Shown: positions 21,451 to 39,646 of the stretch, piece by piece
Layout: every line of letters begins with the position of its first letter
Position numbering within the stretch: position 1 is the first letter of the stretch
Source: Hydractinia symbiolongicarpus
Taxonomy: Eukaryota > Cnidaria > Hydrozoa > Anthoathecata > Hydractiniidae
Direction: 5' to 3'
NCBI RefSeq assembly: GCF_029227915.1
Contig: NC_079875.1
Location: 23,059,001-23,123,000 of the forward strand
Length of the DNA: 64,000 nucleotides
Program-made: the position numbers and the translations under genes
Notes under the pieces: model-generated
The model's database searches: none
Seen by the model: only the letters and a program-made list of their open reading frames with translations
What the model was told of the DNA's origin: nothing

Positions 21451-22105
21451 TTAGAGCTCCTCACGGACCCTGACATGCATGTTCGAGAAGGGTATAAGAG
21501 GACGCATAACCCAGGCTGTACACCGGTATGCGAAAGCTAACAACAAATACATGGGAGACCGGTATAACGAACAACCTCAATGGCTGGGCTATGCGTCAAG
21601 ATCTCCCATCGGATGGTTTTAAATGGATCTCCAACGTCGAGGCATTTACAGAAAAGCGAATCGCGAAGCTCGTTATGGACAATAAATATGGGTACATTGT
21701 AGAGGTTGACATCGACTATCCCGAGAAATTGCACGACACACATAACGAGCTACCATTTCTAACGGAACGCGTGCTGATTGTAATGGTTGAAAAACTGGTA
21801 ACAAATTTGAAAAACAAGCGTGTATATGTTGTGCATATCAGAGCTCTCCACAAGGCTATAAAACATGGGCTTGAATTGAAGAGGGTTCATAGGGTCATCC
21901 AATTTAACCAAAAGCCCTGGTTGAAAGGGTATATAGATCACAATACTGATTTGAGAACAAACGCGAAGAACGAGTTTGAGAAGGATTTTTACAAGTTAAT
22001 AAATTTATGCGTATTCGGGAAGACCATGAAAAATATTAAGAACCACCGCATCATTTGGCTGGTCACCAACGAGGACAAGTATATGAAACATGATCGAAAG
22101 ATATG
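21451..22105 (+). pseudogene. Type-1 PolB palm fragment of Pol-3
   Basis: Begins at a block equivalent to ELLTDPDM in the Pol-2 polymerase, includes RITQAVHRYAKANNKY, GWAMRQDLPSDGFKWISN, KYGYIVEVDIDYPEKLHD and CVFGKTMKN (motif B region), and ends before motif C. About 14 codons carrying motif A (DANNLY) are missing near 21555. Two flanking deletions remove the exonuclease half and the C-terminus. Confidence 0.8.
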
Positions 22106-22114
22106 ACCGACGAG

Positions 22115-22392
22115 TCATAACCGACGAGGGCCTCGACAGGCGTAGACAGTCCCTGCTTGAATTGGCTATTTCAGGTAGACATAGGAAGCAAAGTCTTTGG
22201 GTATTCACACAGGCGACAAAAAAAGCCCTGTTTTTGTAGTACCCGCATGAAAAAAGTGACATGAAAATGGTAGACGAGGAAACCAACCTGATTTAAGATT
22301 GGGATGAGATCAAGGCTGATCTGAAAAAATCCAAACATGCATGCCTATATGTGAGATTGGAACATTCTAGGACTTGAAAGATTCTCGAGTGA
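22115..22392 (+). pseudogene. Packaging ATPase C-terminal fragment of Pol-3
   Basis: Reading across frames gives LLELAISGRHRKQSLWVFTQ and KKSKHACLYVRLEHSR, matching residues 112-195 of the Pol-2 ATPase (30921-30310). Stops near 22240 and 22295 and a frame change break it. It abuts the PolB fragment, so the small genes normally between them are deleted. A related end is at 45888-46010. Confidence 0.7.
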
Positions 22393-22432
22393 CCATGGTG
22401 AAAACCTCTGGCTGAACATTGGTATATAGAAA

Positions 22433-22528
22433 ATGTCGTCGCAAGTTATGTTCAACGCGGGAGCCATTGAAACCTTGCCAACAACCAGGATCAACCTATG
22501 TTCAAAAAGGCTGATCTGGGATGGTTTC
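22433..22528 (+). pseudogene. BRO/MSV199-like gene of Pol-3, 5' part
   Basis: Encodes MSSQVMFNAGAIETL and, after a frame change near 22472, a BRO-N-like block DQPMFKKADLGWF, which resembles the P-W/M-F-K..D...LG core of BRO-N domains. It stops abruptly at the left end of Pol-2. The rest of the gene resumes at 36807; the downstream half is in phase when the 5-bp target duplication is counted once. Confidence 0.65.
22524..22528. repeat. Target site duplication GTTTC, left copy of Pol-2
   Basis: The same five bases occur at 36802-36806, just outside the right end. Polintons usually make 6-bp duplications, so one base may have mutated. Confidence 0.65.
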
Positions 22529-22742
22529 AGAGATAGGAAAATGTATGTTCTAGCGCAGTCGACGGACGACAAGGGAAATTCCCCGAAATCCCGAAATCCC
22601 GAAATCCGAAATTCCAATTCCGGTATAATCCGACAATTCCGGAAATACTGATAAAATCCTACGCATGCGCAATTGCGACTAGCAGGAATAATGCTGACAT
22701 CAACAAAATTTCGAGCGTGCGCAATCGAGTAGGGGGAAGTCC
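22529..22742 (+). repeat. Pol-2 left terminal inverted repeat
   Basis: About 214 bp matching the reverse complement of 36611-36801 at roughly nine in ten bases. It contains a short internal tandem of GAAATCCC words, one or two units more than the right copy, and ACGCATGCGCAA in the inner half. The inner boundary is where similarity stops, before GTCC. Confidence 0.92.
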
Positions 22743-22786
22743 ATAGAGCTGTGACTGCTAATTGAGCTCGGGATGTAATAATAAAC

Positions 22787-23313
22787 ATGAGTCGATATCA
22801 TGAGAATCCCTTCAAGGCCGAAGAAATGTGTACTCGGACGGTTGAAGAGGCACCCATGTTATTGCAGTGCGTTCCAGACCATTTCAAGACCCAAGAAATG
22901 TGTATTGGGGCAGCGCGGAAGCGCTCCTGGATGATACTGCGGGATGTCCCGGACCATATCAAGACACAGGAAATGTGTACCCGGGCGGTTGAAGAATATC
23001 CCAGAGCGCTTAAGGATGTTGCAGACCATTTCAAGACCCACGAAATGTGTACCAGGGCGCTTCAAGAGTATCCATGGCTGCTCAAGTATATTCCGGATCA
23101 TTTCAGACGTCGGAAATGTGCACTGATGCTGTTGGACTGATGCCCTCGGTGCTCAAGCATGTTCCTAACCATTTCAAGACCAAGGAAATGTGTACCGAGG
23201 CGTTTCAGAGGAATCCCACGGTGCTCAAGCATGTCCCGGAGTATTTCAGATCCCAGGACATGGCCCACTGGGAGCCCTCGTGGGGATTTAGTATAAGGTA
23301 TGGAGATCACTGA
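22787..23313 (+). pseudogene. KTQEMC-repeat protein (DUF4116-like), frameshifted
   Basis: Start follows ATAATAAACATG. It consists of about seven units of 24-25 residues built on (F/I)KTQEMCTRAVEEYP..LK.VPDH. Units 1-4 are in one frame; a frameshift near 23110 moves units 5-7 to the next frame, ending in a divergent WEPSWGFSIRYGDH. Repeats of this kind are known from giant viruses and protist or animal genomes (often labelled DUF4116); function unknown, perhaps protein binding. It occupies the outermost position next to the terminal repeat; Pol-3 has a different gene there. Confidence 0.6.
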
Positions 23314-23315
23314 CT

Positions 23316-23340
23316 ATCTTACAACCCTGGGTTGTAAGAT
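23316..23340. terminator. Perfect stem-loop between KTQ and zinc genes
   Basis: ATCTTACAACCC and GGGTTGTAAGAT are exact inverted repeats around one T. It fills the gap between the stop at 23313 and the ATG at 23343. Confidence 0.55.
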
Positions 23341-23342
23341 AA

Positions 23343-23498
23343 ATGGAACAATGCGATGAGTGTGAACGCGTGCTCGATGGGTACGACAGATGCTCCTGTG
23401 GACGGAGGTTCTTCATAAAAGGTAAAATGATATGCTGGTACTGTTACCAAGAGTACATTACGTATAATGGTGGAAGCTGTTCCTGTACCAAACCCTAG
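23343..23498 (+). CDS. 51-aa eight-cysteine zinc protein
   Basis: Cysteines at residues 4, 7, 17, 19, 31, 34, 46 and 48 form four CxxC/CxC pairs, enough for two zinc ions (MEQCDEC, RCSCGRR, CWYC, CSC). The Pol-3 copy (44974-44798) keeps all eight and the motif YQEYITYNGGSC, although the surrounding residues differ. It lies directly upstream of the ssDNA-binding-like gene in both elements. A small zinc-binding regulatory or virion protein is plausible; family not recognised. Confidence 0.65.
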   Translation: MEQCDECERVLDGYDRCSCGRRFFIKGKMICWYCYQEYITYNGGSCSCTKP

Positions 23499-23518
23499 TT
23501 GAACTCCCTTATCGCAAA

Positions 23519-24145
23519 ATGAAAAAGATGTTCAAATTCGGTAACGAGTATGTTAACTCAAAAGACTTTTATGCCAAAGCGACTCCACTAAATATCGAAG
23601 ATGTAAACATTGAAAATATCGTGCTAAGCAACCCTATTCCAGCAAACAAGGGCAAAGATTAACGCTTCGTCATTGGGTATAATAATGACAACAAACTAGC
23701 TCCTCTATTGATCAAAACACCTAAAAAGCTCTATTCCAATTGTGCCTCGCGTTACGATGAGGGCTGCTCTCTTACCATGTCATTCGACATCTATAACCAC
23801 CCCGAGTGGTTAGAGAAGTATGAGAGTATCCTAACCAATGTAGAGTCCTTGACGGGTCATTGCTTCACCACCCCCCCCCCCCCCCCCCCCCCCCTGTGAA
23901 AAAAATACATCACCACCAAGGTGAAGAAGTGGGATGGTAAAATCAAAACCGACTTCCATTTCAAAAAAGTACCACTAAAACAAAGCTGTGAGTGCAAAGC
24001 CATCATCAAGCTATATGGTATCTACAGGCAAGGTTCAAATTATTAGTGTAAGTATAAGGTTGTCGAGTTTTATGGCTCCCGCTACCTTAGCGATTCCGAC
24101 GACAACGAATCCTTCGTCATGGTTACTAGATATGGGAGGTTTTGA
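23519..24145 (+). pseudogene. Putative ssDNA-binding protein (OB-fold type), broken
   Basis: Shows PLLIKTPKKLYS, SLTMSFDIYNHPEWLEKYE and, later, KYITTKVKKW and KAIIKLYGIYRQ before a conserved YKVVEFYG. The pattern of an LVIKTPK-type strand, an early aromatic helix and a late A.I.L.GI(W/Y) strand is reminiscent of single-stranded DNA-binding proteins of large DNA viruses; this is inference. Breaks: TAA near 23660, a run of 24 C at 23871-23894 with frame loss, and a TAG near 24045. Pol-3 copy: 44787-44218. Confidence 0.45.
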
Positions 24146-24174
24146 CGTCCTTTGATCAGTACTTCAAAATAAAC

Positions 24175-24480
24175 ATGAACGACGTTAAGACACTGAAAAA
24201 GGAAGCGAAAGCACTAAAGATCCGTAACTACTCAACTATGAAAAAAGCTGAACTCCTCGAAGCGATCCGCAAGGTCAAGTACAAGGACGCTTCGACACTT
24301 CGGTTATACTGCGAACCTTGCCTCACGATCGCTTGCAAAGAAATCTCGAAGAATACTCGAGACAGCTCTCCGAAAAGCAGCGACGTGTCGTACATGATGG
24401 TGACCGCATCATCGATGGAGGTACTGGAGAAGTACTCCAAATCGTCTAGTATGATTAACAACACACTAGATTATGACTAA
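24175..24480 (+). CDS. SAP-domain protein, 101 aa
   Basis: Start follows AAAATAAACATG. Residues 3-35 (VKTLKKEAKALKIRNYST..KKAELLEAI) match the two-helix SAP/Rho-N pattern used to bind DNA; the remainder is Ser-rich and probably disordered. The same kind of domain begins the type-1 PolB of Pol-1, Pol-2 and Pol-4, so DNA-end or replication binding is plausible. Convergent with the gene ending at 24494. Possibly truncated at its C-terminus. Confidence 0.55.
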   Translation: MNDVKTLKKEAKALKIRNYSTMKKAELLEAIRKVKYKDASTLRLYCEPCLTIACKEISKNTRDSSPKSSDVSYMMVTASSMEVLEKYSKSSSMINNTLDYD

Positions 24481-24493
24481 GCCGGTTGTTCCT

Positions 24494-24738
24494 CTAAGTA
24501 CCGCTGACATACTGCGCAGATTGAAGTTTTTTCAACAGTTCATCCTTCGCCTCCTCACGCCCTTGCGCGATAAGTTGCTGTCGCTCCCGTTCATTGATCG
24601 AGTCCACGTTTTCTACTGTTCGTTGTCGGGTTTGTTCCTTCGACACCATGTAATTTTGTTTCTCCTGTATGATTAGGCTGAACTTGTAGTCGGAGGTGCA
24701 CTCGGTAAGCTCGGGTAAAGCTTAGCAATATCTGTCAT
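24494..24738 (-). pseudogene. Coiled-coil protein (MTDIAKLYP), internally deleted
   Basis: Starts MTDIAKLYP, like Pol-3's MSDIAKLYP at 43642, but lost about 35-70 codons and the frame near 24705. The remaining part (CTSDYKFSLIIQEKQNYM, INERERQQLIAQGREEAKDE) is a charged helix matching Pol-3's SDYEFTLILQEYKKYM and INEQERAQLVAKGREE. Function unknown. Confidence 0.5.
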
Positions 24739-24751
24739 TATTATTCTATTA

Positions 24752-25030
24752 ATGGGTGTATAGTAATTCCCACGAACGAAACGTTCTTATCATGATGATG
24801 TTCATCTGCCAACATGAATTCGAGACGATCGGTCGAACCCTTCAGGGGGAGGTATACTGGGTTATCAAAACTACACGTAAGCATGTCTCCCCATGCGTTT
24901 AGCTCTTTGGTGGGAAGCATAGCCAGTATCTTGGATTTTTTACCAACCAGCAGGCAGTCATCTTCATCTAACTGGGGGCAAACAAGCCTCAGTCACTGGT
25001 AAACGTCAGTCCTATAGAATGAATCGTAGT
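24752..25030 (-). pseudogene. Remnant of a putative minor capsid (penton-like) gene
   Basis: The reverse strand reads LRLVCPQLDEDDCLL, KKSKILAMLPTKELNAWGDM and DNPVYLPLKG..DRLEFMLAD, matching the better preserved Pol-3 gene at 43078-43632. Its N-terminal half is lost. The penton-like label is inference. Confidence 0.4.
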
Positions 25031-25995
25031 TCACCAAGTACCCCATCAAAGTCCCCACTAACCTGTTGAACGATCCTGTGAGTGTAAATTGGGAGGGGCA
25101 AGCCTTGGATTATTGGGACATCCAGGTGAATTTCGCTTGTCATTGCGCGACAACGGCGTTGGGGTCTCTGCCAAGCACATGAGTGGCTCCGTACCTCTCG
25201 TTCAATCCATTTTCAAATTCCACGTGTACTATCACATGAGACGTATTCTCGCGAGAATGAAGGTACCCATGCCATACGAAAGAGGCTTTTCGCAGTACGA
25301 GAACCCCTACTTCACCTCAGGGTATGCGCAAATATGTCGTGAGTACGGTGCGGACCCCAACGCTTTGTACAAATTCAAAGCTCTTGTGTCGTCGTTGACA
25401 AATGGTAGATGGTGGCCGCAGGTTGATGGGGATTGGGCCAAGTTTATCATCCCCACTAGCCAGGGTTTGACATCGGAAGGTTTGATGAAGCTTAGCGAGA
25501 GTATTCGCGTTTACATGATCTTGCTACTAGGATACCAAGCCAGTACCAAGGGTTCAATCCTAGGCTCTAACGTCGATAACTTCATGGCTAGACAGATCCT
25601 CCTGCAGAAATTCGAGGCCATGGTTAAACGTGAGGAGAACGTAGGTCACGACATAAGGGAGTATCAAAAGGTGCTCCAGTATGCACAGACTCCGGTAAAC
25701 TTCGTCGTGATGTCCAGCGTGTACATGCTACCTTGCAACATGGACCTCCGCATTGGTAAAATCGTGGGGTATAACAATAATGTTCTGATCGCGCCCTCTA
25801 ACGTAGGCGTAGAGGTGGAGCTAGACCTGAATACCAAAGCCCTTGACCACACCTCCTAGGCAGACTATCAAGTCGAAGAAAAACACGCCTCCTCCTGACA
25901 CCAAGGATGCCCACAGGCAGCATGAGGATATCAAGGGCACTGTAATAACGGTGGGAGTAGGGCTCATCCACGCCTTCATCTGGATGAAGAAATAG
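25030..25995 (+). pseudogene. Orphan conserved Polinton protein (about 390 aa), two frameshifts
   Basis: Blocks KVPTNLLNDPVSVNWEGQAL, YYHMRRILARMKVPMPYE, NGRWWPQVDGDWAKFIIP, LMKLSESIRVYMILLLG and RQILLQKFEAMVKREE are shared with Pol-3 (43059-41908). Frame shifts lie near 25145 and 25840; in the second frame the C-terminus is Pro/Lys-rich and ends in a short hydrophobic segment (GTVITVGVGLIHAFIWMKK). It lies in the structural-gene half between the penton-like and capsid genes. I recognise no family; a virion component is an inference from position. Confidence 0.55.
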
Positions 25996-26025
25996 GTCTA
26001 ATGTGTTTATCAACATACTAGACTC

Positions 26026-27287
26026 TCATCGATTCTTTCCACCCTTACTCCTCCTGTTACCTACATACGCAACAACAATACCCACAGCAGCAGCTAGCGC
26101 CATGTACAAGTGCTTTGCCGCAAACTCAACAACTCTCGCTGCAACTGCAACGCTGCACCTGCCTTGCCTGCTAGGTACTTCAAGAACTTTCCGAGTCTTT
26201 CAAGCTGTTTTTGCACGAAACCCTTGCCCTCGGCACCTCCTCCTGTAGCAGCTCCTCCGGCGGCACCTCCACCTCCAGTGACAGCGAGCACGATGGTTGT
26301 TGATACAAGCAAGCCAACAGCAGAAATAACGCTGGCGATAGTCAGGCTTTGCTCCCGTAAAAGGGTTTTAAGCTTTTCAAGCAAGGTGTTATCGTCTCCA
26401 GCAATCTTCATCAGCTCGGATTTAATAGACCTCAGTTGCTTAAAAACCTCGGATCAAAATAGACCATGCCTACTCAGTTCATCCTTCTTATCTTCCTTTA
26501 ATTTCTTCAATTCCTTCTCAAGATCATCAATATCCTGAAGCCTCCGCACCCCGGGCTTCTGCTTCTTAAGTTCTTTAAGCTTGCCCTCTTTCGTATTTAT
26601 CTCGCTATCATATTGTACAAGTGTATCCTCACCTCCTTAATAGTCTTCTGCAGGTTTTCAATTTCAAGCTTTAAATTTCTCATATCAGGAACCTCAATCT
26701 CATCGTCGATGCCCGCGAACGAATTATCTACATAACCCTCTACGTCACCAGCAAAACTTTGAATGCTATCAATTGTTTGCATTTCGATCGTCTCACCCTC
26801 CTCATCCCTATTCAATACAAGAACATCAACCTCCAGCGCGAGGTTCTGGGCCATAGTATTACTGCCCTTGCGTGGTGTAGTATAGTCGGTGAACACCATG
26901 GCTCGCAATCGCCCGGCACCTAACCTCCTCCGTATATCGGCAACACTCCTCAATTCACCATTCATTTTATTGAGCTCTACACCATCGTATAAAAGCCGGT
27001 TCCCATCGACCTCAAAATCGTCGTAGTGTCTCGCACTCGGCTCCTTCCCCAGCTCCTTACTTAGGGGATCATAAAGATCGTCTACCTTCGATTTGAGCAA
27101 CTTTCCCCTCGCGTAGGTCGTGATATCTCCGCTGGACGATTGACCGTGCTCTTCTGGTGTTGGGGGTGGACCTAGGAATATCGCCGGGTTGAAGGATCTC
27201 GCTATCGATACTAAGCTCTTCAGTCTCGTCCTGAATATCTTCCGCTGGCGTAAAGCCTTCGTTATCGTATCCTGGATTTTCATCCAT
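26026..27287 (-). pseudogene. Gly-rich membrane/coiled-coil protein, broken
   Basis: The start MDENPGYDNEGFTPAED parallels Pol-3's MADNPVFTHEDD. Then KVDDLYDPLSKELGK, HYDDFEVDGNRLLY, NGELRSVADIRRRLG, a coiled coil, a hydrophobic stretch (LTIASVISAVGLLVSTTIVL) and a Gly/Ala-rich loop, ending KHLYMALAAAVGIVVAYVG and a basic tail. Frameshifts near 27090, 26600 and between 26600 and 26410 break it. The Pol-3 copy (40877-41902) is nearly intact and carries the description. Confidence 0.6.
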
Positions 27288-27316
27288 TTATTCAACCCCT
27301 CTACAACCTATTAATA

Positions 27317-28572
27317 AATATACGGAACAAAGTTAGATCCTCAAAATGAATTAAAGACAATGCTTGCCATGAAAGGCAAGAAACAGCGTGTCAAGGTCTC
27401 GCATAACCCTAGCATGATTAATCAGAACGAAGACTTGTACGTGGACGTACCCAATTTAGGTGATGTTCCCCGGCTCCCTTAAACTCCTCTTTGACTTAGA
27501 GCTTACCGGCACCAACACTAAAAGCACCATCATAAGCAACATCGGCAAAGCCCTGGTTCATAACCTTCGCATAAGCTTGAACGGTCACGAAGTGCAAAAC
27601 ATCAGCGATTACAATGTGTTTGCGGTGTATAGGGACCTGTGGCTTCCCAAATTTGAACGCGGGAACAATCTAATTCTTGAAGGCATCAACCCCAACAATA
27701 GTAGAATCCGCGCGCTGCAAGTCAAATCCAGCGACCCAACCGATGGAAATGATGAAGAAAAGGCGATCGTGGCAGCTTACGGCAACACTTTCGCTATCCC
27801 TATCGGCAAAATGTTCGAGTTGACGAGGGATCTACCATTCTACCAAGCAGGCTTACACGACAGACTGCAGTTTGCCATACATTTTGCACCCTATGGCCAA
27901 GTCATCAAAGGTGGCGGTGCACCAAAATCAGGGTCTTCCGAAGCTAAACCAACTGATGCTACGTACAAGATCACAAACATTTGCTAGGAGTTTGATAAAG
28001 TGACAAACGAGGGTCTTGCGAGTGCTATGATGTCACGATACTCGAGGCTCGCCCTGCTCTATGAGCGTGTACTCCGCAGCCAGGTTATAACGATGAAGAA
28101 AGCTGATACCTCCTGCAACTTGCAAATCGATACCCCTGCGAAGAGCCTGAAAGGTATACTCCTGTCGTTCGTAGAAGTGAAGCCTTATGCTGGCACTAAC
28201 GAGGTCTTCTACAACCCAAAGATCGAGAAAATCTCGACCACTGTAGAACGTGAGCCGAATGAACTGTATAGCCACGCCATGCTCCCATAAGACCATCTCG
28301 AGCAAGTCGTTGAACTTTTTGGTAGCCATGACTCTGGGGTGACCATCGGTCAGTTCTTCAACCAGCGTTACGCGCTGTTCATTGACTTCAGAGCGACACC
28401 AGATCACAGCTTGCACGGAAGTGGCAGGCCTCTACAGAGGTTGTCGGATGGCATCAATCTCCACATGACCAAGAAAGCCAATGGAGATGGGAATATATGC
28501 TGCTACGTCTATCTATTACAAGATGCGCAACTGAACATTAAGGATGGCAGGTGGCATAGCACAGAAATAAAG
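27317..28572 (+). pseudogene. Major capsid protein, double jelly-roll type, broken
   Basis: Covers the whole gene: N-terminal NPSMINQNEDLYVDVPNLG, then LKLLFDLELTG, ALVHNLRISLNGHEVQNISD, YNVFAVYRDLWLPKFE, LRDRLQFAIHFAP-like core, and the C-terminal blocks seen at 3-599. Damage: lost start codon region near 27315, frameshift near 27455, TAG at 27985, TAA at 28288. The terminal stop is also lost, so the last part reads through into the 132-aa gene. Its role in the family is to form the icosahedral shell. Confidence 0.75.
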
Positions 28573-28806
28573 ATGGCGACCTTAGCAGTAATGGCAGGAG
28601 GAGCGTTAATTAACGCATTGGCGTTTAGTGGCTCTAATTTTTGTTCAGTAAACTCAGTGGGCATGGTGAAGCAGAACGCAAGAGGCATGAGAAAGCTATT
28701 TAACAACTTCAAGCAGCTCAAGCACAGTGGGTACGTGACAGACAGGGCAAAATCGACTGGTATAACAAGCAACGAGAGCTTAAACAACAAGCTGGCGAAA
28801 GCTCTC
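28573..28806 (+). pseudogene. 132-aa membrane protein, truncated and fused toward integrase
   Basis: Begins MATLAVMAGGALINALAFSG, shifts frame near 28645, and continues as the charged helix until about 28805, where a deletion joins it to the integrase body. The second hydrophobic segment is gone. Confidence 0.7.
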
Positions 28807-28817
28807 TAAGAAGTCTC

Positions 28818-29637
28818 TCTAAGAAGCGTGTTACTCATTGGCTGACTCGTCAACTTGCTTGGCTCCGCCATATTCGAGGGCCGAGGCGCATCAATTACCC
28901 ACATTTCACTATTACAAAGCTGAATGAAATGCACCAATTTGATTTGCTCTATATGCCCCATGACAAGCTGCATGGAAACACGTACAAATATATCCTCGCA
29001 GGCATCGACGTGGCTCCGAGGTATAAGGTAGCGAGGCCTTTGCGTACGAAAAAGGCTAGCGAAGTCGCTGACATGCTCAAGGACGTATACAAAGCGGGAC
29101 CTCTGCGTTATCCGAGTATATTCCAATGCGACAACGGTAGCGAGTTCAAGTCTGCCGTTACCAAGTCTGCCCTGTACCAAATACCACCACACTTTCACGG
29201 CGTTCGTCGAATCGTATAACAAGGTGCTTGCAAGAGGCTCTTCAAACCTCAAGACGCGCAGGAGTTGGTCAGTAATGAACAGAGTACCACTTGGGTTAAA
29301 CACCTCTATACTATCGTCAAGGGGTTGAACAACACCAAGACCGCTATGATTGGTATGGAACCTTCGAAAACCATCAAGCTCGAGGAGGTGCCGCAAGGTG
29401 AGGAAAAGCGGTCTATACTTACACCTCCTGCAACCTGGAGAAGAGCATGGTGATGCTAAAAGACGCGCTACGGACGCTTGGTGGAGCAAAAAGACGTATA
29501 GACTTGATCGTATCGTGACAGGTACGCGTCTCCTGTACTATTTGGCTGATGGGCCTGATCGAAGCTTTGTGTCAGAGGAGTTGATGCTAATACCCGAGGA
29601 TGTTGAAGTACCTCCGGAGCATGTAAAACAATGGTAA
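28818..29637 (+). pseudogene. Polinton integrase of Pol-2, N-terminally deleted
   Basis: Picks up at KKRVTHWLTRQLAWLRHIRG, so the first 45 or so residues (the YY..LW.GRKAIK segment) are missing. Core motifs are present: HQFDLLYMPHDK, GIDVAPRYKVARPLRTKK, FQCDNGSEFKSAVTK. Near 29165 some codons are lost and the frame changes before the Glu motif (VRRIV in place of FVESYN region), with another break near 29395. The C-terminus (LDRIVTGTRLLYYLADGPDR, EDVEVPPEHVKQW) resembles the SH3-like tail. Catalytically dead in this form. Confidence 0.85.
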
Positions 29638-30012
29638 ATTTCTCGAGTCGGATAGCCATTTCACCGGTTCGCCCGCTGCGGGGGAACCGCTCAGTTTAAT
29701 AGGTGTCAGTGCCACCGACACATATCAATGTTGACCTTCCTTTACCCGGCATGGTATGCCGCCCCTGACCACGTAGCTCGTGGTTCTGTTAGTAACACCG
29801 TGTTTGGGTGAAGATACTTAAATCCAAGTACCTCTTGGAGATCGGTAAAACCGTGTCCGGATGAAGGGGACGCTCAGCGTCCCCTTTAACATCCTCTTCC
29901 ATAACGTCCTTATATCGTATTATATACCTGCTGGGGACATGTAAAAGAGTGGTAAATTTCTCGAGTCCGAGGGTTATTTCATCAAGACTCCCGTACCGGG
30001 GACTTGCTTAGT
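29617..30012. repeat. Duplicated integrase-end/stem-loop segment
   Basis: The segment 29617-29701 (end of integrase, AAATTTCTCGAGTC and a stem-loop) is repeated in diverged form at 29935-30012. Stems: 29665-29689 (CGGTTC..CCCGC with GCGGG..GAACCG) and 29983-30006 (CAAG..TCCCG with CGGGG..CTTG). A third perfect stem, AAGGGGACGCT with AGCGTCCCCTT, lies between at 29864-29886. The region also keeps a 30-bp remnant related to the Pol-1 BRO gene (29747-29780). Confidence 0.6.
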
Positions 30013-30082
30013 TAATACTTATAGACGTAGTTTTTGTGGCTTTGATAACCCACAAAACTTCTAGCGCCGTAACACCCTGGTC

Positions 30083-30292
30083 TTAATATTTCATCATATA
30101 GTGGATCATGGCAAGAGCCAGCGACGAAACACAGGCGATTTAAGCGATCCGGTCGTTGTGTTTATCACTCTGCCACATCTTATACAGCGACTGATCGATT
30201 TCCTCATGTCTCGCTTCCAAGTTCTTGATTGTTTCCTCCAATTTCTGGATCTCCCCCTCAAACTCCTCTCGTAATTTTTCGATACAAGACAT
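30083..30292 (-). pseudogene. Small coiled-coil membrane protein with in-frame stop
   Basis: Start follows AAATAAATATG. Reads MSCIEKLREEFEGEIQKLEE, then NLEARHEEIDQSLYKMWQ, a heptad-like charged helix, and after an in-frame TAA at 30140-30142 a short hydrophobic segment (IACVSSLALAMIHYMM). About 67 residues if the stop is ignored. Located just downstream of the ATPase on the same strand. No counterpart was found in the other copies. Confidence 0.4.
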
Positions 30293-30309
30293 ATTTATTT
30301 AGTTGAAAG

Positions 30310-30921
30310 TCAAGGCAAAATGCTCCAATTTCTGGGGTGTTCCAATCTCATGTACAAGCATGCATGTTTCGACTTCCTGAGCCGAGCCTTAATAATGGAA
30401 ATTTCTTCCCTACTCAAAATTACATCCTTCTCTTCATGAATTAGATCGAGCTCCTTTCGATTCTTAGGATACCAAACAAAAAGCTGTTTCGTTTGGTCTC
30501 TTACCGTTATTGGGATCTTCTTATATCTTTGTGTTAGCAGCCACAAGCTGTTATTCCTATGCCTGCCTGAAACAGCTAGTTCCAGCAACGCCCCACGAGT
30601 TTTATCCATAGATTCATCGTTTATCATGTCATCAATAATGAACAAGCTCTCTTCCCCCGCTAGCAGCTCTGATAATTTGCTTATCCATTCGAACAGCTGA
30701 TCAACCGGCTCTATCAGTAGTAACACGTTGTCGTCCTGCCAGAGACATAACCTTACTAAGTAAGTCTTGTTCCAGCGGATCGTTGGGCAGAGGATTATGA
30801 TGTAGTGAAAGTGGTGTCTGTACTCGTTCTCGAGCAAGTCCAGCACTCGCTGAGTCTTGCCACACGAGGTAGGCCCTGTAAAAATCGCGGTATGAGGTTG
30901 TAACACCACATCCAGAGTCAT
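30310..30921 (-). CDS. Packaging ATPase, A32/FtsK-HerA type
   Basis: Intact, 203 residues, close to the usual size of Polinton ATPases. Walker A is GPTSCGKT at residues 16-23, Walker B SLFIIDD at 92-98, a sensor-like LLTQR at 128-132 and a conserved C-terminal KSKHACLYMRLEHP. Family proteins drive genome packaging into capsids in NCLDV, adeno-like and Polinton lineages. The start follows AAGATAAATG. It lies first in the right-half gene row, 17 nt from the next small gene. Fragments of the gene survive in Pol-3 (22115-22392) and Pol-4 (45888-46010). Confidence 0.85.
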   Translation of the reverse strand: MTLDVVLQPHTAIFTGPTSCGKTQRVLDLLENEYRHHFHYIIILCPTIRWNKTYLVRLCLWQDDNVLLLIEPVDQLFEWISKLSELLAGEESLFIIDDMINDESMDKTRGALLELAVSGRHRNNSLWLLTQRYKKIPITVRDQTKQLFVWYPKNRKELDLIHEEKDVILSREEISIIKARLRKSKHACLYMRLEHPRNWSILP

Positions 30922-30937
30922 TTATCTTATGTTTGCC

Positions 30938-31140
30938 ACAGTGGCAGACACAAGCCTGGTAGGTACTTACTTAGACTTAGGGGAGGAATCCAGCCTTTCG
31001 CTACCGCCATCTCACGGCTTCCCCGTCCAGAGGAATCTCTTACCAACCATAGCGTAAGCGAATGTAAAGCCTAGGTCCACGGCACTTTCATATACCATGT
31101 CTATAATCTCCTTCTGTTGCGGTTTCACATTAGAACTCAT
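30938..31140 (-). pseudogene. MSSN small protein of Pol-2, truncated
   Basis: Starts MSSNVKPQQKEIIDMVYE after TATATAAATG, matches Pol-1 through FTFAYAMVGK, then loses about 30 codons and the frame; a TGA follows KP. The out-of-frame tail still reads SREMAVAKGWIPP, equivalent to the Pol-1 end. Confidence 0.6.
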
Positions 31141-31208
31141 TTATATAATATTTATTTCATATTGGGAAACTCGATATCGGGCTGGACTGTGGGCTTTGAA
31201 GGCTGACG

Positions 31209-31523
31209 CTACTCTGGTGCACGTGTTATGGCAGGCTGCTGAGCCGCTGCGGGCTGCTTACGCGTAAGGTAGTAGACACCTCCCACACAGGCGAGTATAA
31301 CAAACAGGCTTCCACCAAGGTATATGGCACCTGACTGTACGGAACTTGATCCAGAACTCACCCCAGAAGAGGTTTTGATTGTAGATTCTACAGCCGCCTC
31401 TTGTTGCTTCAGTTTCATCTTTTCCTTCTTCAGTGCCGCCAAATTGTGACCCCACGCGACTCTCCCTGGGTGCTTTACTGGCTTTGTTAAGACTGTTAAT
31501 TCTTGTGGGTGTTGTTCGCTCAT
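31209..31523 (-). CDS. Ser-rich single-pass membrane protein, 104 aa
   Basis: Intact. Order: KPVKHPGRVAWGHNLAALKK (conserved basic block, residues 16-35), charged helix, Ser-rich linker (SSGVSSGSSSVQSG), hydrophobic segment (AIYLGGSLFVILACVGGVYYL cut to its core SLFVILACVGGVYYL), and a Pro/Ala/Gln-rich end. No signal peptide, so the segment is probably a C-terminal anchor. Relatives: 4061-3704, 47029-46667 and 63626-64000. The basic block is also shared with Pol-5, whose polymerase is of a different type. Confidence 0.65.
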   Translation of the reverse strand: MSEQHPQELTVLTKPVKHPGRVAWGHNLAALKKEKMKLKQQEAAVESTIKTSSGVSSGSSSVQSGAIYLGGSLFVILACVGGVYYLTRKQPAAAQQPAITRAPE

Positions 31524-31576
31524 TTCTTGTAACTCAAGAGACTTACAAAATCACTTCCAAACATAGGCCTTGATCT

Positions 31577-31849
31577 TCAAGGAATACAAATACCCAGCAG
31601 GGTGGCCCTCAGGCCGCTTCTGCCAGCGTACCTTATTCTATTAACCTGTGGAACCATCACCAAATCACATGCCTGAGGTGGAAAGCGATCTGCTGCCGGC
31701 GTCAATATTTTTTCGCGTGCTTCAAAATCTCCGAACATGCTGCACAAATCTGTATAACGTACCTCCCTTCTATACCCTATTAGCTCATTGGTTACACGTT
31801 CAACTCTTTCACGTCTACCCATGTGTATCTTCGATAGACTGTTTCCCAT
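31577..31849 (-). CDS. 90-aa protein with N-myristoylation-type start, Pol-2 copy
   Basis: Begins MGNSLSKIHMGRRERVERVT and keeps the same length and the blocks GYRREVRYTDLCS and ADRFPPQACDLVMVPQVN as the Pol-1 copy. Most differences fall in the acidic middle and the C-terminus. The start lies inside the 3' end of the anchor-protein gene (31815-32437) in another frame, overlapping by 35 nt. Confidence 0.6.
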   Translation of the reverse strand: MGNSLSKIHMGRRERVERVTNELIGYRREVRYTDLCSMFGDFEAREKILTPAADRFPPQACDLVMVPQVNRIRYAGRSGLRATLLGICIP

Positions 31850-32437
31850 TCCTTTCTTGCTCTTCATCAACCTTCTCTTCAACTACCTTGGACATGGAGA
31901 GTTGGCAATGGTTTACAGTATGCGCAGCAATAAGCAGAGGTGTCAGGAGCTTTCAAAACGCCGAGTACACGAGAATCCCCAAGTCAGCCATACTATCCCT
32001 GATGATAGGGTCAGCTTCCAGGTCTTGACGGAGCTTATCAGCACTATCTAGAGTCACCACGTTGCCTATAGCCTTCGTGTACATGCTGATGGCATGAGTT
32101 AATAAGGCCTTGGCGGTCTTTTCACCTTTTTCATGGATCTCACGTTGAGTGTACTCGGCATGTATCTTGTCGATAACCTCGTCTGATGCTTTGTCAACAA
32201 AGCCCTCTGTACATTTTTCGGCAGAAGGTGGGCCTTGCCTTTGCGTGTTGCATCCTTCAGGGCTTGACGTTTGTCTATAGGTTTTTCACGTTGCTCAAAT
32301 GTTTCTGCGGGAGTATCAACAACATCAAAAATTTCAGCTAATTCAGACATCTTTATTAGTCGTCTATATCTCAAATAACCGAAGATGATCAAGACGTATG
32401 GCAAACTTATGGCGATCAGTAACAATACGTCCAACAT
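31815..32437 (-). pseudogene. N-terminal-anchor membrane protein, Pol-2 copy
   Basis: Start follows TCAATAAATG. Anchor LLLIAISLPYVLIIFGYL, then SELAEIFDVVDTPAE, EKPIDKRQALKDATRKGK, CTEGFVDKASDEVIDKIHAE and RDSMADLGILVYSAF. A frameshift near 32220 and a TGA after YSAF (near 31965) interrupt it. Order and overlap with the MGNSLSK gene equal those in Pol-1. Confidence 0.65.
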
Positions 32438-32455
32438 TTATTGACATCATGTGTG

Positions 32456-32482
32456 CAAAGGTGGTGCTGGACAACACCTTTG
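32456..32482. terminator. Stem-loop after Pol-2 PolB
   Basis: CAAAGGTG and CACCTTTG form an 8-bp stem around an 11-nt loop between the PolB stop (32511) and the anchor-protein start (32437). Same position as 4993-5019 in Pol-1; the stem is extended by one pair. Confidence 0.5.
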
Positions 32483-32510
32483 GAATCAGTAGATACAATG
32501 CTTGGACATG

Positions 32511-35500
32511 CTACAAGCTCTCCTTAGCCGCTAAGCGATAATGACCCCTGGCGAACGTTGTGATCTGATTCGCTTGTACGATCCGTTTGTCGTCTGCTTT
32601 TTTGAGTGCCAGCTTGTTCACTTCCTGGGTATAGATTTGATGCCCCTTGTTCTGAATACAGACCCAGGTTTACATCAACACCCTCCTCTCGGCAGCGCTG
32701 ATAGTCTTCGAAGGTGATGGATTTCTTCGTGACGCACTTCTTTACACCTTTAGCTTTGCGATCGCTGCCCTCTTTCGTGAGACTCTTGTAAGCATAGAGT
32801 TTTGCTGTCAGTGTAATGAAGTCTGTAATGATCTTACCATTAAGCTCATCTTTCATGAGACCTACCACCTTCTTGTTTTTGGCGATGGGGAGAGGTCTGT
32901 TGTCATCTTTGCTATAGGCACTTGTATCGAAACGTGCCTCTACATCATCGGCAATATCACGATAAAAGTCCTCTGTTCTGATGTGATAGACGAAAGAATC
33001 CGTGTCCACATAGCAGATCCGCAGCTTGCTACCGTACTTGGGCTGCATGTAGTCATAGTGGAAGTCGTACATTACGATTTTCGAGTTGTCTAAAATGGCT
33101 TGGCCAATATACACCGGCTTGTTCATCTTTACATCTGTTTTACACATTTCCACGCCCATGAGGCGGCTGCTGAAGTAGTCCCCGCCCTTGAAGTTTGGTT
33201 TCATGACGAGCTTGGTGTACTTTTCTTCGTTGGTAACCAACTGGATGTTGTGATGGTTCCTCAAGTTCTCCATAGTTTTACCAAACACCGAGAGGTTCAT
33301 GAGCTCATAGAAGTCCTTCTCGAAATCATTTTTGGCGGCCGTTCTCAAACTTGTGTTGTGGTCGATATAACCCCTCAGCCAGGGCTTCTGGTTAAATTGG
33401 ATGACTCTATACACCTTCTTAAGCTCGAGCCCATGCTTAAAGCTTGATGAAGGGCTTTGATGTGCACAACGTACTTCTGCTTGTGTTCCAAATTTGGTAT
33501 CAGTTTCTCGACCCTGTGAACCACCTTTGTCGTTCGTTGTGCTTGTCGTGCAGGCTCTTTGTATAATCGATGTCAACCTCCAAGATATAACCATGTTTGT
33601 TGTCAGCAACGAGCTTGCCGATGCGCTTCTCTGTAAAGGTCTCTACATTCGACAGCCATTTGAAGCCGTGCGTCGGCAGATCTTGACGCATAGCCCAGCC
33701 ATACAAATTGTTGGCATCGAGGTACTGCAAATATGACGACTCAACTTCTGGATCGTATTGATCCCCCGTATACTTGTTGTTGGCTTTGGCATATCTGTGC
33801 ACGGCTTGAGTTATACCACCCCGGATACCTCTTTCAAACATCAGGAGCATGTCAGGGTCCGTTAGCAGCTCCCGCTTGATTTCTGTGTACTTCAACGCTG
33901 CTTTCCATGCCAAGCCTGGTGCACTGTAAAGTGGGTGAGGTCGAGCTTGTAGTTCTCTAAGCATATGCTTTGAAAGCTCTCGGATACGTCGGCTAGTAGC
34001 AGGACGTCTGTGGTGAGGTACAGGTTGCGATAATCTCCCATGGTGACCTCGGAGCCCTCTGGAGTGATGACATTCCATACTTTTTGAGCGTGCTTGTGGT
34101 CGTTGTCGCCAATTCCCTTCATGTTCAGTTTGCTATAGAAGGCCTCCTTGGGTGGTAGTTCCGTCTCCTTGAATCGTCGCCAGCCATCCATGTGCTCATA
34201 GGGGTAGACACCCTTTCATCTTTGTCGATGAATTTGGCCATGGATAGTACGTTTGCCTTTACCTGCTCCTTGTATAGCTGCTTCGTGGTATTCGACTCGC
34301 ACTTTTTACACCAAAAGCTTGCTACATACTTGGCGTCAATGCTCCGAAATTCCAGACATGTATTCGAGCACTGCTGTCATTTCATACCTGCCGTTTTTGT
34401 GCCGATGAGGTTGCTTGCCAATTTGTCCAGGCTCGAGGCCATGAACCGACAGCTGTCGATGAATCGTATCTCTATAGTCTTGTACGTATCACCATCACCG
34501 TTCCCCATGCCTGCAATAGGCACCCTGATTTTAACGTTGAAGGAGATATACTTTTCCGTGTTTTCAGCGATACAACCAATATTCTGGGTGTCGTACTTCT
34601 CCCCCAGTTTTCGGATGTATAAGTGCGCGTCGTACCCTGAAAGATTGTGGAAGATCACGGGTACGTGACTAGGTATCTTGTATCTAATGTTTCAAATCGC
34701 GTGCGCTGCATCTTTATACAGCCCCGTGTAGTGACAGTGGTCTCGAACTTTACGACTATAGTCGTCGTTGTCAAAGGGTTTCACGCAAATGTGACAAGTC
34801 GTGGCGGAGTCGTGCTCCCTCTTTAGTACCTCCGTTAGTGGTAACATATCCTGTTGATGGTAGGTGCTGTAGAGTCGCTTTACCTCATCCTCTAGGTGTT
34901 GGACGAACTTCTTCACGCAGTCCCCAACCTTATAGACTGTCAATGGGTCTGGTACGGGCCCGTAGGCATAGGTACTATATGTGCACCAGCCGCATGGTAC
35001 GTGCTTGTTCAGCTTTTTCGTCTTGCTCTCCCTCTTATCTTCAGTCATGGGAACGATCAGGGATTCAAAATCTGCATAGATGGCGAATGGTACTTTGAAC
35101 TGCTGCTGACCATCCTTGTAGTATAGCCACTTTTCCTTTTCGCTTGGCATCGTGATCTTTACCGCTTCGTTGTCCCTGCAGTAGTTATAGTGCTTATCAC
35201 CCGATTCGATTGTTGGAAAGGCTTGTAAGCAGTTCAGGACATTTTCGCCGTATTCTTCGATTTCTCGCTAGCCAATAGCCGTGAGAGATTTTTGACGGCT
35301 AGTGTGTCTTTTTATCATTCGTGAGGAGTAACAGATTAACCTGTTTCTCGCGTTCGTTGTGTAGATTGACGTAGGATATTGAACGTCTTCCCCGTCACGT
35401 ACAAGACATTCACCGCAATGTCAGGGTTGTTCTTTTCAAATTTGGATATATCCTTGAAGCTTGTGGGGAACTCGATGCCCTGCCAGTTATAGCGCTCCGC

Positions 35501-36546
35501 ATAGGGTCTTAGCTTGCTGATTCTCTGTGGATCCCTAGCTATCTCTTCATGATGCAGAGCAGCGATGATGCTCCATTTGAAGCACTCCTCATCCTTGTTG
35601 CGGGGTTAATGATAGCCTTTTTGGTGGCTATCCACTTGGGTGCTTCTATATACGAAGAACCCCTTGTTAGCCTATGTCGAGGTGCATGATTCGACTAATT
35701 GTAAAGCCATTTTTGGGTAACGCTGGGTTCTCCACATGCGTTCTGACTTGGGCAAACATCGTATCCAGCACCTCGTCCACGACTGTACCCTGGAATACTG
35801 ATGTCATGTTGTTATGGAAGATCTTATCGACTTCGATAAACTCGCTAGTGCCCTCCACTGGCTTCTTCCATAAAATCCAGATGGAGCACTGCACCTTAGC
35901 GGACCCCATGTCTTTAACCTGATTTTCAACCAGGGTTTTCACGTCTGATCGCACCATGCCCAAATACCCATCGACATCCGTGCTGTCTATGCCAGGGATG
36001 CGAAAACTCCTGAAGGTCCTATGATGAGCATGCTTATGTTCCTGGGGAGTGAAGTGTTGGTTCGGTTGCTGGTTGTCTTCAGCATGATCCTCCCTTGCTT
36101 TTCTTCAACTTCACCTATCAGAGTCTTCCTTACCCCATCATAAAGAGCAAGGATGCGATTTTTTGCTGATGCATATATACTTTGCAATGGCTTTCTAATA
36201 CCCTCTGGTACATAGTTCACAAGCCAGTCAGACCACTCTCGCAGCTTACTCTTTACCACTGGACGAGTCCTCGCCACCTCTTGGCGTTCGAACATATCAT
36301 GGCTTCGGGTGTCGGGAGTCGAGGCTCGATCTTACTCTTACTAGGACGGGTTTTTGCCATCTCTTGACGCTCGAATATATCCAAGGCCTCTGGTGCAAAT
36401 GCTTGTGGCCTTGATTCTGGAGCAGGAACAGGTCTTGGGGATGCCTCCAATAAAGCAACAAGGTCGGCTTTGTGTAGCTTGGAATAGCCCGTAAGTCCAC
36501 GGGTTTTCGCGATAGCGTGTAACTGTTTCACAGTATGTGTATTCAT
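32511..36546 (-). pseudogene. Protein-primed PolB, type 1, of Pol-2
   Basis: Start at MNTHTVKQLHAIAK after CAATAAAG, with SAP-like helices and two FERQEM repeats. Exonuclease motif YADFESLIV, zinc-type segment CHICVKPF..VRDHCHYTG, motif A YLDANNLYGWAM, motif B region LMNLSVFGKTMEN and motif C CYVDTDSFVY are all readable. Frameshifts or stops occur near 36295, 36060, 35985, 35610, 35270, 34690, 34370-34200, 33870, 33520 and 32680. The C-terminus ends TTFARGHYRLAAKESL. Full-length equivalent is about 1,300 residues. Confidence 0.9.
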
Positions 36547-36610
36547 CTTTATTGTATAGATTTTTGATTTCATTCAATAAAATTTTTAGCGCGGTCGTAC
36601 TTTGAGTATG

Positions 36611-36801
36611 GGACTTTCCCCTACTCGATTGCGCATACTCGAAATTTTGTTGATGTCAGCATTATTCCCGCTAGTCGCTATTGCGCATGCGTATGATTTT
36701 ATCAGTATTTCCGGAATTGTCGGATTATATCGGAATTGGAATTTCGGATTTCGGGGAATTTCCCTTGTCAACTGCGCTAGAATATACATTTTCCTATCTC
36801 T
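36611..36801 (-). repeat. Pol-2 right terminal inverted repeat
   Basis: About 191 bp, inverted copy of 22529-22742. Differences are scattered substitutions plus a lower number of GAAATCC words. It lies about 65 bp from the PolB start. Confidence 0.92.
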
Positions 36802-36806
36802 GTTTC

Positions 36807-37555
36807 TTGGTATTGAAATGGTTAATAATATGGTGATACCTTCAACGTTCCTATCTACCAGGGCTGAAATAGTGGGGTCCAAGGGGTCCCATCCCATGGG
36901 CCCCCGATCAGGTATGCAAGCAGAAGCGAAAAATGGGCATGGTGTATTCGTCACATTGGATGGTGCCCTGGAGCTGGTGCGTCGTTCCAGATATTCCAAA
37001 GCTGTAGGGGTCATCAAATGGCTTGCCAGGGCAGATGTCCAAAAACTACAAGATGTAATTAAAGAGCATCGCCAGACCATCGAGGACAGGGATAGGGCCC
37101 TGGCCTTCTTCGGTGATGAAATTAAGGATAGGAACAACCAACTCGTGGTGTTGGAGTATGAGCTCGAGGATAGGGATGAACAACTTGATGCTCTTAAACA
37201 ATGCACCTCGGAAACACGGCATAAGCATGTTCCACACCGATATCAATATGATACCTTGCTATGTGTGGTTGATAAAAACGATCCCCACGAGCATGGAAAA
37301 AAAGGCATGCATAAGCACTACATGATCTAATGCCAGAGTATGCAACTCAGCACAAGAATAAGCACGTTAGGGGCGATGTACCCTGAGATGACTGTGAGGA
37401 AACCGGAGTGCGACGATCCGAATGCCGTACATGTCTGGTGCCAATTCAGAGACGATACCCTGGGCATTGAGAATTATAACCTCAATCACTTCACGTTACC
37501 CGACGATGATACGCGGGATCTATTCGAGGGGATGTTTGAAATTGATATGTCGTAA
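36807..37555 (+). pseudogene. BRO/MSV199-like gene of Pol-3, 3' part
   Basis: Continues the gene begun at 22433. Readable: VFVTLDGALELVRRSRYSKA, VIKWLARADVQKLQD, a coiled coil (TIEDRDRALAFFGDEIKDRN), KHVPHRYQYDTLLCVVDKND, then a TAA at 37328 in place of an Arg codon (YMI stop CQ), and LSTRISTLGAMYPEMTVRKP to the end. The C-terminal half matches the Pol-1 copy at about two thirds of positions. Known relatives combine a DNA-binding MSV199/BRO-N domain with DUF3627. Confidence 0.6.
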
Positions 37556-37608
37556 GTGGGCTACTCTTGTGGTAGTAAAGTTAGCATATCATATAGTGGA
37601 AATGGTGC

Positions 37609-37643
37609 CAATAGAGGAGGGGTTTAGATCCCCTCCTCTATTG
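37609..37643. terminator. 14-bp stem-loop after the Pol-3 BRO-like gene
   Basis: CAATAGAGGAGGGG and CCCCTCCTCTATTG are exact inverted repeats around a 7-nt loop, 54 nt after the stop at 37555. The strongest stem in the window after the palindrome at 48.6-49.1 kb. Confidence 0.6.
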
Positions 37644-37734
37644 ACCAGTTTGGCTTCGAGATATCAAGTATTGAATTATCAAGAAGGTGGAAGCCTATGT
37701 ACAAAAAAATCAATTTACCGTGAACTACAATTTT

Positions 37735-38228
37735 CAGGTACCTGTGCTACACTGTTGCATCAACGCAGGGTCGGTGACTGGTTATTGTCCTGCCTGCCTG
37801 GAAAATTATAAATATCGAGGTGGAGTATACTACGAGGGGTTTGAATACCCTACTGACTATTAAACAGGTTAGCATCAGGCGAAAAAACAAGGGGTACATT
37901 TGCGAGAAGGGAGATTGACTAGGAGGATGACATTGAACGTCTAAGCCTCCATATTGTTGATATTAAAGAGAAAAACTATGGGGCACTCTGTTACCAAGTC
38001 ATCAAAGATAGGGAGTTGAAGCTTTTGGCCGATATATCAACAGTAGGCGATATACGCAACTTTGTCATAGAAGATAGACACCTAATCGATATTGATTTGG
38101 AAAATGAGCCCAATGTCATCAAAGGTATCATCTATGGATACCCGTTCTATACCCAACACCCTTTGGATTATTTAAGGGATCCGAATGACAAAGATTGGGA
38201 TGAGAATCTAGAGGAACGCACTACTTGA
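37735..38228 (+). pseudogene. Cys-motif and YGYPFY-motif gene(s) of Pol-3
   Basis: The first part (37735-37863) reads LHCCINAGSVTGYCPACLEN with two Cys pairs and ends at a TAA. A second part (37900-38228) reads DDIERLSLHIVDIKEKNYGA, LLADISTVGDIRNFVIEDRH and ENEPNVIKGIIYGYPFYTQH, ending in an acidic tail. The YGYPFY block is the one at 3179-3391. A TAG near 37920 interrupts the second part. The two parts may be one gene or two. No family recognised. The 3' end overlaps the end of the convergent integrase. Confidence 0.4.
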
Positions 38229-39219: not shown

Positions 39220-39244
39220 GTTTATTATACATGTTAAAAACGTT

Positions 39245-39643
39245 TTACATATATTTATATGCCACAAGCCCTAGCAGAGATAAGGATCCAAGGATGAAGG
39301 TGAGTTCTCCATCTTATTGTGGTTTTGAGGGTGAGTAAAAGTCTGACAATTTCGGGGCCTTATCATTAGATGCGATGTAATATTTGTACATATCGTCGTC
39401 AAGCTCCTGAAGGCTCTTACCCGCCTTTATCTGCATTTTCCGTTGCTTATTGAACCAGTCGATTTTTACTTGTCTGTCTTGTACCCACTTTGCTTGGGTT
39501 GCTTGTAATTTTTGCATGGCCTGGTCATGCCTTTTCCTCTCTTCCTCACCATGTCCTGCAAGTTCACTGAATAGAAAATTTGTACCATTAAAGGCAAATG
39601 CGTTAATCGCAGCACCTGCAACAATAACAGTTATTGTTGCCAT
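39245..39643 (-). pseudogene. 132-aa membrane protein of Pol-3, one in-frame stop
   Basis: Start in the overlap TAATAAATG with the capsid stop. MATITVIVAGAAINAFAFNG, charged helix, then KLSDFYSPSKPQ and a TAA at 39314-39316 followed in the same frame by DGELTFILGSLSLLGLVAYK, matching the intact Pol-1 gene in full length (132 codons). Confidence 0.75.
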
Positions 39644-39646
39644 TTA

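What the first reader, a model, noticed from the sequence alone, without database searches (positions are those of the whole stretch)
22524..36806. Complete Polinton inserted inside the BRO-like gene of an older Polinton
Pol-2 has 190-214 bp inverted ends starting AG and ending CT, and GTTTC on both sides. The gene fragments on its flanks (22433-22528 and 36807-37555) belong to one BRO/MSV199-like gene, and counting GTTTC once keeps the two halves in phase across the joint. Exact ends, target duplication and an empty-site reconstruction are thus all visible in one window. The duplication reads as 5 bp, whereas 6 bp is usual for Polintons.
Basis: partly seen in the sequence, partly recalled or inferred. 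Interest (0 to 1): 0.85.

Follow-up and report, generated by a model that had tools for sequence, protein, structure and literature searches.

The report
Decayed Polinton nested in another Polinton
In the genome of a small marine animal (the hydroid Hydractinia), one old virus-like mobile element is found inserted in a second, older one, with its ends and target-site footprint still readable; this is a well-preserved but ordinary example of a known process.

Summary
Pol-2 occupies 22529-36801 (14,273 bp); its inverted ends (214 and 191 nt) agree at 182 of 191 aligned bases, it starts AGAGATA, ends TATCTCT, and GTTTC flanks both sides. Random end pairs match over 5 bp or more in 410 of 200,000 draws. 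Both flanks fit one older, inverted Polinton (Pol-3): capsid, integrase, BRO-like gene, ATPase and PolB pieces in order.

Corrections: (1) "In phase" holds only for a left frame open 19 codons; the ATG frame at 22433 is out of phase. (2) BRO-like identity is weak and no bridging relative was found. (3) Pol-2 is complete in its ends only; integrase, PolB and capsid matches carry stops or frame changes. (4) 5 bp lies within the published 5-6 bp, and a 6-bp duplication short of one base would look identical. (5) Pol-3's end (45882) abuts another Polinton ATPase fragment, so the nest is probably three deep. The host is Hydractinia symbiolongicarpus; its genome could not be searched, so duplications were not tabulated.

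The parts
22529..36801 (+). Pol-2: Polinton, 14,273 bp end to end, genes decayed
   Evidence: TIR pair, flanking GTTTC, colinear with Pol-1 (direct) and with Pol-3 (inverted):
22529..22742 (+). left terminal inverted repeat of Pol-2 (214 nt; holds a CCCGAAAT array, 22582-22612)
36611..36801 (-). right terminal inverted repeat of Pol-2 (191 nt)
22524..22528 (.). target-site duplication copy GTTTC, left
36802..36806 (.). target-site duplication copy GTTTC, right
22787..23262 (+). Pol-2: DUF4116 repeats
   Evidence: PF13475 E 3.4e-9 for ORF 22787-23140; 72-bp array 22944-23262
27354..28566 (+). Pol-2: probable major capsid protein region, broken
   Evidence: weak Capsid_N E 0.004, below cutoff; 76% identity to the Pol-1 copy with 2 stops over 27973-28566; matches Pol-3 40204-40805; folds uninformative
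28827..29634 (+). Pol-2: retrovirus-like integrase, broken
   Evidence: 65% identity to the Pol-3 integrase over 28827-29393 with 1 stop; distal part 29485-29634 matches Pol-1
30310..30921 (-). Pol-2: A32-type packaging ATPase, open frame of 203 aa
   Evidence: PF04665 E 9.2e-10; terminase PHROG E 2.1e-10
32524..35918 (-). Pol-2: family B DNA polymerase, broken over several frames
   Evidence: tblastn with Pol-1 pieces; motifs DANNLYG and YVDTDS
22433..22528 (+). left (N-terminal) piece of the interrupted BRO-like gene of Pol-3; the frame in phase with the right piece is open only from 22471
36807..37555 (+). right (C-terminal) piece of the BRO-like gene, in-frame stop at 37328-37330
   Evidence: 56% identity over 228 aligned positions to the Pol-1 copy 2267-2887
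21454..22528 (+). left part of the older Polinton Pol-3 (PolB piece, ATPase piece 22114-22386, BRO-like N-terminus), truncated at its left
36807..45882 (-). right part of Pol-3 in inverted orientation, ending TATCTCT at 45882
   Evidence: colinear in reverse with Pol-2 23333-29618; end motif, moderate score
38250..39141 (-). Pol-3 integrase; open frame 38335-39087
   Evidence: PF00665 E 3.4e-12; 100% over 98% of its length to a Hydractinia symbiolongicarpus protein
45883..46010 (+). C-terminal piece of another Polinton's ATPase, directly outside the Pol-3 end
   Evidence: tblastn E 2.5e-9, residues 160-202; blastn 45894-46010
46420..51198 (+). Pol-4: right part of a further Polinton, ending TATCTCT at 51198

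Best explanation
Pol-2 is a Polinton/Maverick element that was integrated, by a retrovirus-type integrase, into an older inverted Polinton (Pol-3) already resident in the chromosome of Hydractinia symbiolongicarpus. The hit lay in Pol-3's BRO-like gene, between its integrase and its ATPase. Staggered cutting at GTTTC and repair left that sequence on both sides. Both elements have since decayed. Shown: ends, inverted repeats, flanking repeat, gene order of the flanks, broken genes. Inferred: that an integrase of the family did it, that the stagger was 5 rather than 6 bp, that the two flank pieces were one gene, and the order of events.
For: TIR alignment and matching flanks. Five ends of four elements share AGAGATA (7 of 7 in all 10 pairs, though the sites at 9302 and 45882 were chosen for that 7-mer) and the outer 7 bases match only 0-4 of 7. 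Pol-3 reads in one inverted order: capsid, integrase, BRO-like C-terminus, [Pol-2], BRO-like N-terminus, ATPase, PolB. In Pol-1 the BRO-like gene also lies tail to tail with the integrase. The long right frame is phase-compatible with an open left frame. Pfam finds the rve integrase in Pol-3 and the A32 ATPase in Pol-2.
Against: The ATG frame of the left piece is out of phase. No relative bridging the joint was found. Bro-N scores are below cutoff and coiled-coil models score as well or nearly so. The small piece 38091-38180 lies on the other side of the BRO-like gene in Pol-1, and no ATPase was found in Pol-1, so the full order is not confirmed by a second copy. Phase agreement alone has a one-in-three chance.
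Confidence: 0.88

Rival explanations
1. The insertion is real but the original duplication was the usual 6 bp; one base next to the element was lost later, leaving 5 bp.
For: A 6-bp duplication that has lost one base at either joint gives the same present-day sequence and the same empty site. Perfect 6-bp duplications were required of vertebrate Mavericks (PMC8097293, passages). The two TIRs differ by two indels, so small losses have happened.
Against: It needs one more event. 5-6 bp is already reported for mavirus and 'MPEs' (PMC8547959, passages).
Confidence: 0.45
2. The left piece 22433-22528 is not part of the BRO-like gene; Pol-2 inserted between or beside genes at the edge of the BRO-like gene of Pol-3.
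For: ATG frame out of phase; no Pfam match for the left piece; no bridging relative found.
Against: The right frame is open from the first codon at the joint, the in-phase left frame is open for 19 codons, and the gene order puts the start of the BRO-like gene here, next to the ATPase.
Confidence: 0.15
3. The arrangement is an assembly join or a recombination between separate Polinton copies rather than an insertion.
For: At least five Polinton pieces lie in the window, so misjoins are possible; Pol-3 shows internal deletion and truncation.
Against: A misjoin would not be expected to give both a TIR-bounded element and a flanking direct repeat (0.2% by chance) with the two parts of one inverted element on either side.
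Confidence: 0.04

Closest known systems
Polinton/Maverick elements of animals (Kapitonov and Jurka 2006, recalled; vertebrate set in PMC8097293, passages seen)
   Same: Size near 15 kb, AG...CT ends, TIRs of about 200 bp, rve integrase, A32 ATPase, family B polymerase motifs, direct repeat at the target
   Different: 5 instead of 6 bp at the target in this one copy; DUF4116 repeats; a BRO-like gene in the Pol-1 and Pol-3 copies; integrase, PolB and capsid regions of Pol-2 broken
Endogenous mavirus-like elements (EMALEs) of Cafeteria (PMC8547959, passages seen)
   Same: Short duplications, mostly 3-5 bp for EMALEs and 5-6 bp for mavirus and 'MPEs' (which I take to be Maverick-Polinton elements); mobile elements nested in viral elements (Ngaro retrotransposons)
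   Different: Animal host; here the nested element is another Polinton
Oxyrrhis marina polinton-like virus with Bro-N (PMC12721341, passages seen)
   Same: Bro-N genes reported in some polintons, there head to head with the ATPase; endogenous copies decayed
   Different: That element has a Bro-N/VRR-NUC fusion and a tyrosine recombinase; the Bro-N match here is below cutoff

Membership tests
Polinton/Maverick | Terminal inverted repeats of 100 bp or more with AG...CT ends | tested here: met
   214/191 nt, AGAGATA...TATCTCT
Polinton/Maverick | 6-bp target-site duplication | tested here: inconclusive
   5 bp GTTTC seen; 6 bp with one base lost gives the same sequence; 5-6 bp published
Polinton/Maverick | Retrovirus-like integrase (rve) | tested here: met
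   PF00665 E 3.4e-12 in Pol-3; broken homologue in Pol-2, 65% identity
Polinton/Maverick | A32-type packaging ATPase | tested here: met
   PF04665 E 9.2e-10 in Pol-2
Polinton/Maverick | Protein-primed family B DNA polymerase | tested here: inconclusive
   Motifs DANNLYG and YVDTDS in Pol-2 (meaning of the motifs recalled); PHROG DNA polymerase E 0.0027 for the Pol-1 N-terminal part; no Pfam polymerase hit for any piece tried, no PDB or NCBIfam polymerase hit for Pol-1 pieces
Polinton/Maverick | Double jelly-roll major capsid protein | tested here: inconclusive
   Capsid_N E 0.004, below cutoff; no useful PDB hit; both models have mean pLDDT near 31
Polinton/Maverick | Maturation protease and minor capsid protein | not tested
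   Unassigned frames such as 25179-25859, 26094-26411, 26597-27283, 31209-31523 and 32099-32437 had no Pfam hit; not pursued
BRO (Bro-N) gene family | Bro-N domain above the curated cutoff | tested here: not met
   Right piece 13.2 bits E 0.14; Pol-1 copy 18.5 bits E 0.0031; left piece no match; cutoff 25.6. Described as BRO-like only

The most novel reading that the evidence does not exclude
The Polintons of this hydrozoan use an integrase with a true 5-bp stagger and tend to land in one another, building nests at least three deep, so that older viral copies act as landing ground for newer ones.
Probability: 0.1. Interest if true: 0.45.

Novelty: new member of a known kind. Interest (0 to 1): 0.24.

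Why it matters
It gives an exact element boundary, a readable target site and a relative order of insertion for Polintons in Hydractinia symbiolongicarpus. In the open-access library no paper holds both that species name and 'Polinton', and 3 hold it with 'Maverick'. It does not change what is known about how Polintons integrate. If many copies share the 5-bp footprint, the stagger of this integrase could be compared with that of mavirus and vertebrate Mavericks.

Tried and rejected

Relatives of the BRO-like gene: protein searches with the right piece (none at E 0.01 of 142 candidates) and with the Pol-1 copy (none at E 1 of 140 candidates); one alignment scan of viral contigs (47 stretches, none confirmed); phage records gave no match for the Pol-1 copy and two 24.6% matches at E 0.3 for the right piece, to a replication initiator, judged chance. 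PDB gave 6 chains at E 0.47-0.73, judged chance. Scans of viral contigs for the ATPase and for the 18-base end gave none.

A 3-bp duplication (TTT) with the element read as CAG...CTG was considered: it fits Pol-2 alone, but the outer base at the other ends is T (Pol-3), C (Pol-4) and G (Pol-1), so AG...CT is preferred.

End test, against 6,000 control sequences given the same 7 terminal bases: 51198 (score 42) beats the 99.9% level (33) but not the control maximum (48); 45882 (30) beats the 99% level (26) only; 9302 (22) does not, and an unrelated site, 52155, scores 28. The Pol-1 and Pol-3 ends therefore rest on position and context: blastn of the inner TIR at 9169-9253, and colinearity that would put the Pol-3 end near 45789 (my sum).

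My first reading, that the two pieces are simply out of phase (ATG frame), was dropped when the second left frame was seen.

In one search the row with a Pol-3 piece at 41962-42265 (38% identity, 6 stops) came from a poorly chosen frame and was dropped, as was a stray 36% PolB match at 26720-26887.

Structure models of two capsid pieces were useless, so no fold search was made.

Full report
What was checked. The window is animal DNA: the open integrase frame at 38338-39087 is 100% identical over 98% of its length to a predicted protein of Hydractinia symbiolongicarpus, and 15 of the 120 listed relatives (of 2,646 matches) carry that species name. The species is a colonial hydrozoan (lineage). 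In 2-kb windows the Polinton stretches are about 39-49% G+C and the DNA between them about 27-36%.

Ends of Pol-2. The left repeat, 22529-22742 (214 nt), and the right one, 36611-36801 (191 nt), agree at 182 of 191 aligned bases, with 9 substitutions and two length differences totalling 23 columns; the left repeat holds an array of CCCGAAAT units. The element starts AGAGATA and ends TATCTCT. GTTTC lies directly outside on both sides. Read outward as inverted repeats, the flanks match at 2 of 7 and 3 of 20 positions. For random pairs of places in the window a direct repeat of 5 bp or more was seen in 410 of 200,000 draws.

Other ends in the window. blastn with the left repeat finds 51166-51198 (82% over 33 nt, E 0.001) and parts of 9169-9253. 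The motif TATCTCT occurs 11 times and AGAGATA 3 times in the window; those at 51198, 45882 and 9302 fall where Polinton stretches end. In all 10 pairings of the five ends the inner 7 bases agree (the sites at 45882 and 9302 were chosen for that motif) while the outer 7 agree in 0-4 positions. Scored against controls, 51198 is above the 99.9% level, 45882 is moderate, and 9302 is not significant by itself; one unrelated site (52155) scores about as well as 45882. The base outside the ends varies (C, C, T, C, G), which speaks for AG...CT as the true ends.

What the flanks are. A self-comparison of the window shows Pol-1 (1-9302, same orientation as Pol-2, cut by the window edge), Pol-3 in the opposite orientation, and Pol-4 (46420-51198, same orientation as Pol-2). 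Pol-3 reads, from its end at 45882 leftward: pieces matching Pol-2 23333-26384, capsid region, integrase, BRO-like C-terminus (37549-36807), then Pol-2, then BRO-like N-terminus (22528-22433), ATPase residues 99-202 (22386-22114) and a PolB piece (to 21454), where it is cut off. In Pol-1 the BRO-like gene also lies tail to tail next to the integrase (2267-2887), with 56% identity over 228 aligned positions to 36884-37549. Pol-2 shows no BRO-like gene with these queries. So both sides of Pol-2 belong, most simply, to one older inverted Polinton. One small piece (38091-38180) is on the other side of the BRO-like gene in Pol-1 and no ATPase was found in Pol-1, so no second copy shows the whole order.

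The reading frame. With GTTTC counted once, the right-hand frame starts at 36806 and is open for 173 codons to a stop at 37328; after that stop, similarity to Pol-1 continues in the same frame to 37549. This frame continues leftward into codons that are open for 19 codons, to a TGA at 22468. The ATG at 22433 opens a different frame, which would meet a stop 9 codons after the joint. The residues on either side of the joint in the second frame look to me like the conserved part of Bro-N domains, but that resemblance is recalled and was not tested; Pfam gives only sub-threshold matches, at profile positions 55-91, in the right piece and in the Pol-1 copy, and none in the left piece. I did not read the two halves as one protein (see referred step).

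Five or six. PMC8097293 (passages) uses perfect 6-bp duplications for vertebrate Mavericks and names (AG)3...(CT)3 among their end motifs. PMC8547959 (passages) gives 5-6 bp for mavirus and MPEs and mostly 3-5 bp for Cafeteria elements. PMC12220804 (passages) gives 5-6 bp for polinton-like viruses in one place and 6 bp as typical of rve integrases in another. A single 5-bp case is therefore not a clear departure. A 6-bp duplication that lost one base at either joint gives the identical present sequence.

State of Pol-2. Compared with its relatives, the integrase match has one in-frame stop and gaps, the capsid match two stops, a small gene (31583-31894) one stop, and PolB is spread over several frames with stops. 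The ATPase frame is open. Pol-2 looks like a fossil with both ends, not a working element. The 4.7% difference between its two repeats (9 of 191) fits an old insertion if the repeats were alike when it inserted.

A deeper nest. The Pol-3 end at 45882 directly abuts an ATPase C-terminal fragment of another Polinton (45885-46004, E 2.5e-9), so Pol-3 itself probably sits in an older Polinton. Its other end is lost, so no duplication can be read and this step is inferred.

Verdict. The nested insertion is real and well preserved, and its explanation is ordinary. Nested mobile elements in polinton-like viruses and virophages are in print (retrotransposons in PMC12220804 and PMC12747079, Ngaro elements in PMC8547959; passages). 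Bro-N genes in some polintons are in print (PMC12721341, passages). For nested Polintons I searched four phrases: 138 papers held two or more of the six terms, and among the 15 listed none held 'nested Polinton', 'nested Maverick' or 'Mavericks inserted'; the other 123 were not seen. No paper in the library holds H. symbiolongicarpus with 'Polinton'. Of the three that hold it with 'Maverick', two were seen in passages and report Maverick among the more abundant DNA transposons of other hydrozoans.

Noticed in passing
45883-46203: ATPase C-terminal fragment (+) followed by a piece of the gene seen at 1132-1299 (here on the minus strand), opposite in orientation to the Pol-4 body; an extra rearranged Polinton fragment.
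   Followed up: partly
48586-49115: About 530-bp palindrome (87% self-match on the other strand) in the PolB region of Pol-4; looks like a foldback element.
   Followed up: no
60279-64000: A further Polinton piece with a different PolB (motifs DANMLYP and YMDTDSAY) on the plus strand.
   Followed up: no
9304-15937: A LINE-like reverse transcriptase frame (11963-15091; identity judged by eye, not searched) lies between two long AAT/ATT arrays in inverted orientation, starting right after the Pol-1 end.
   Followed up: no
20549-21178: Tyrosine-recombinase-like frame (PF00589 E 6.5e-5, 23.2 bits against cutoff 27.1) next to the truncated end of Pol-3.
   Followed up: no
42135-42723: Tandem duplication of 296 bp (98-99% alike) inside a Pol-3 gene.
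   Followed up: no
24175-24480 and 36253-36573: Rho_N domains near both ends of Pol-2 (PF07498 E 3.2e-7 and 1.9e-6).
   Followed up: no
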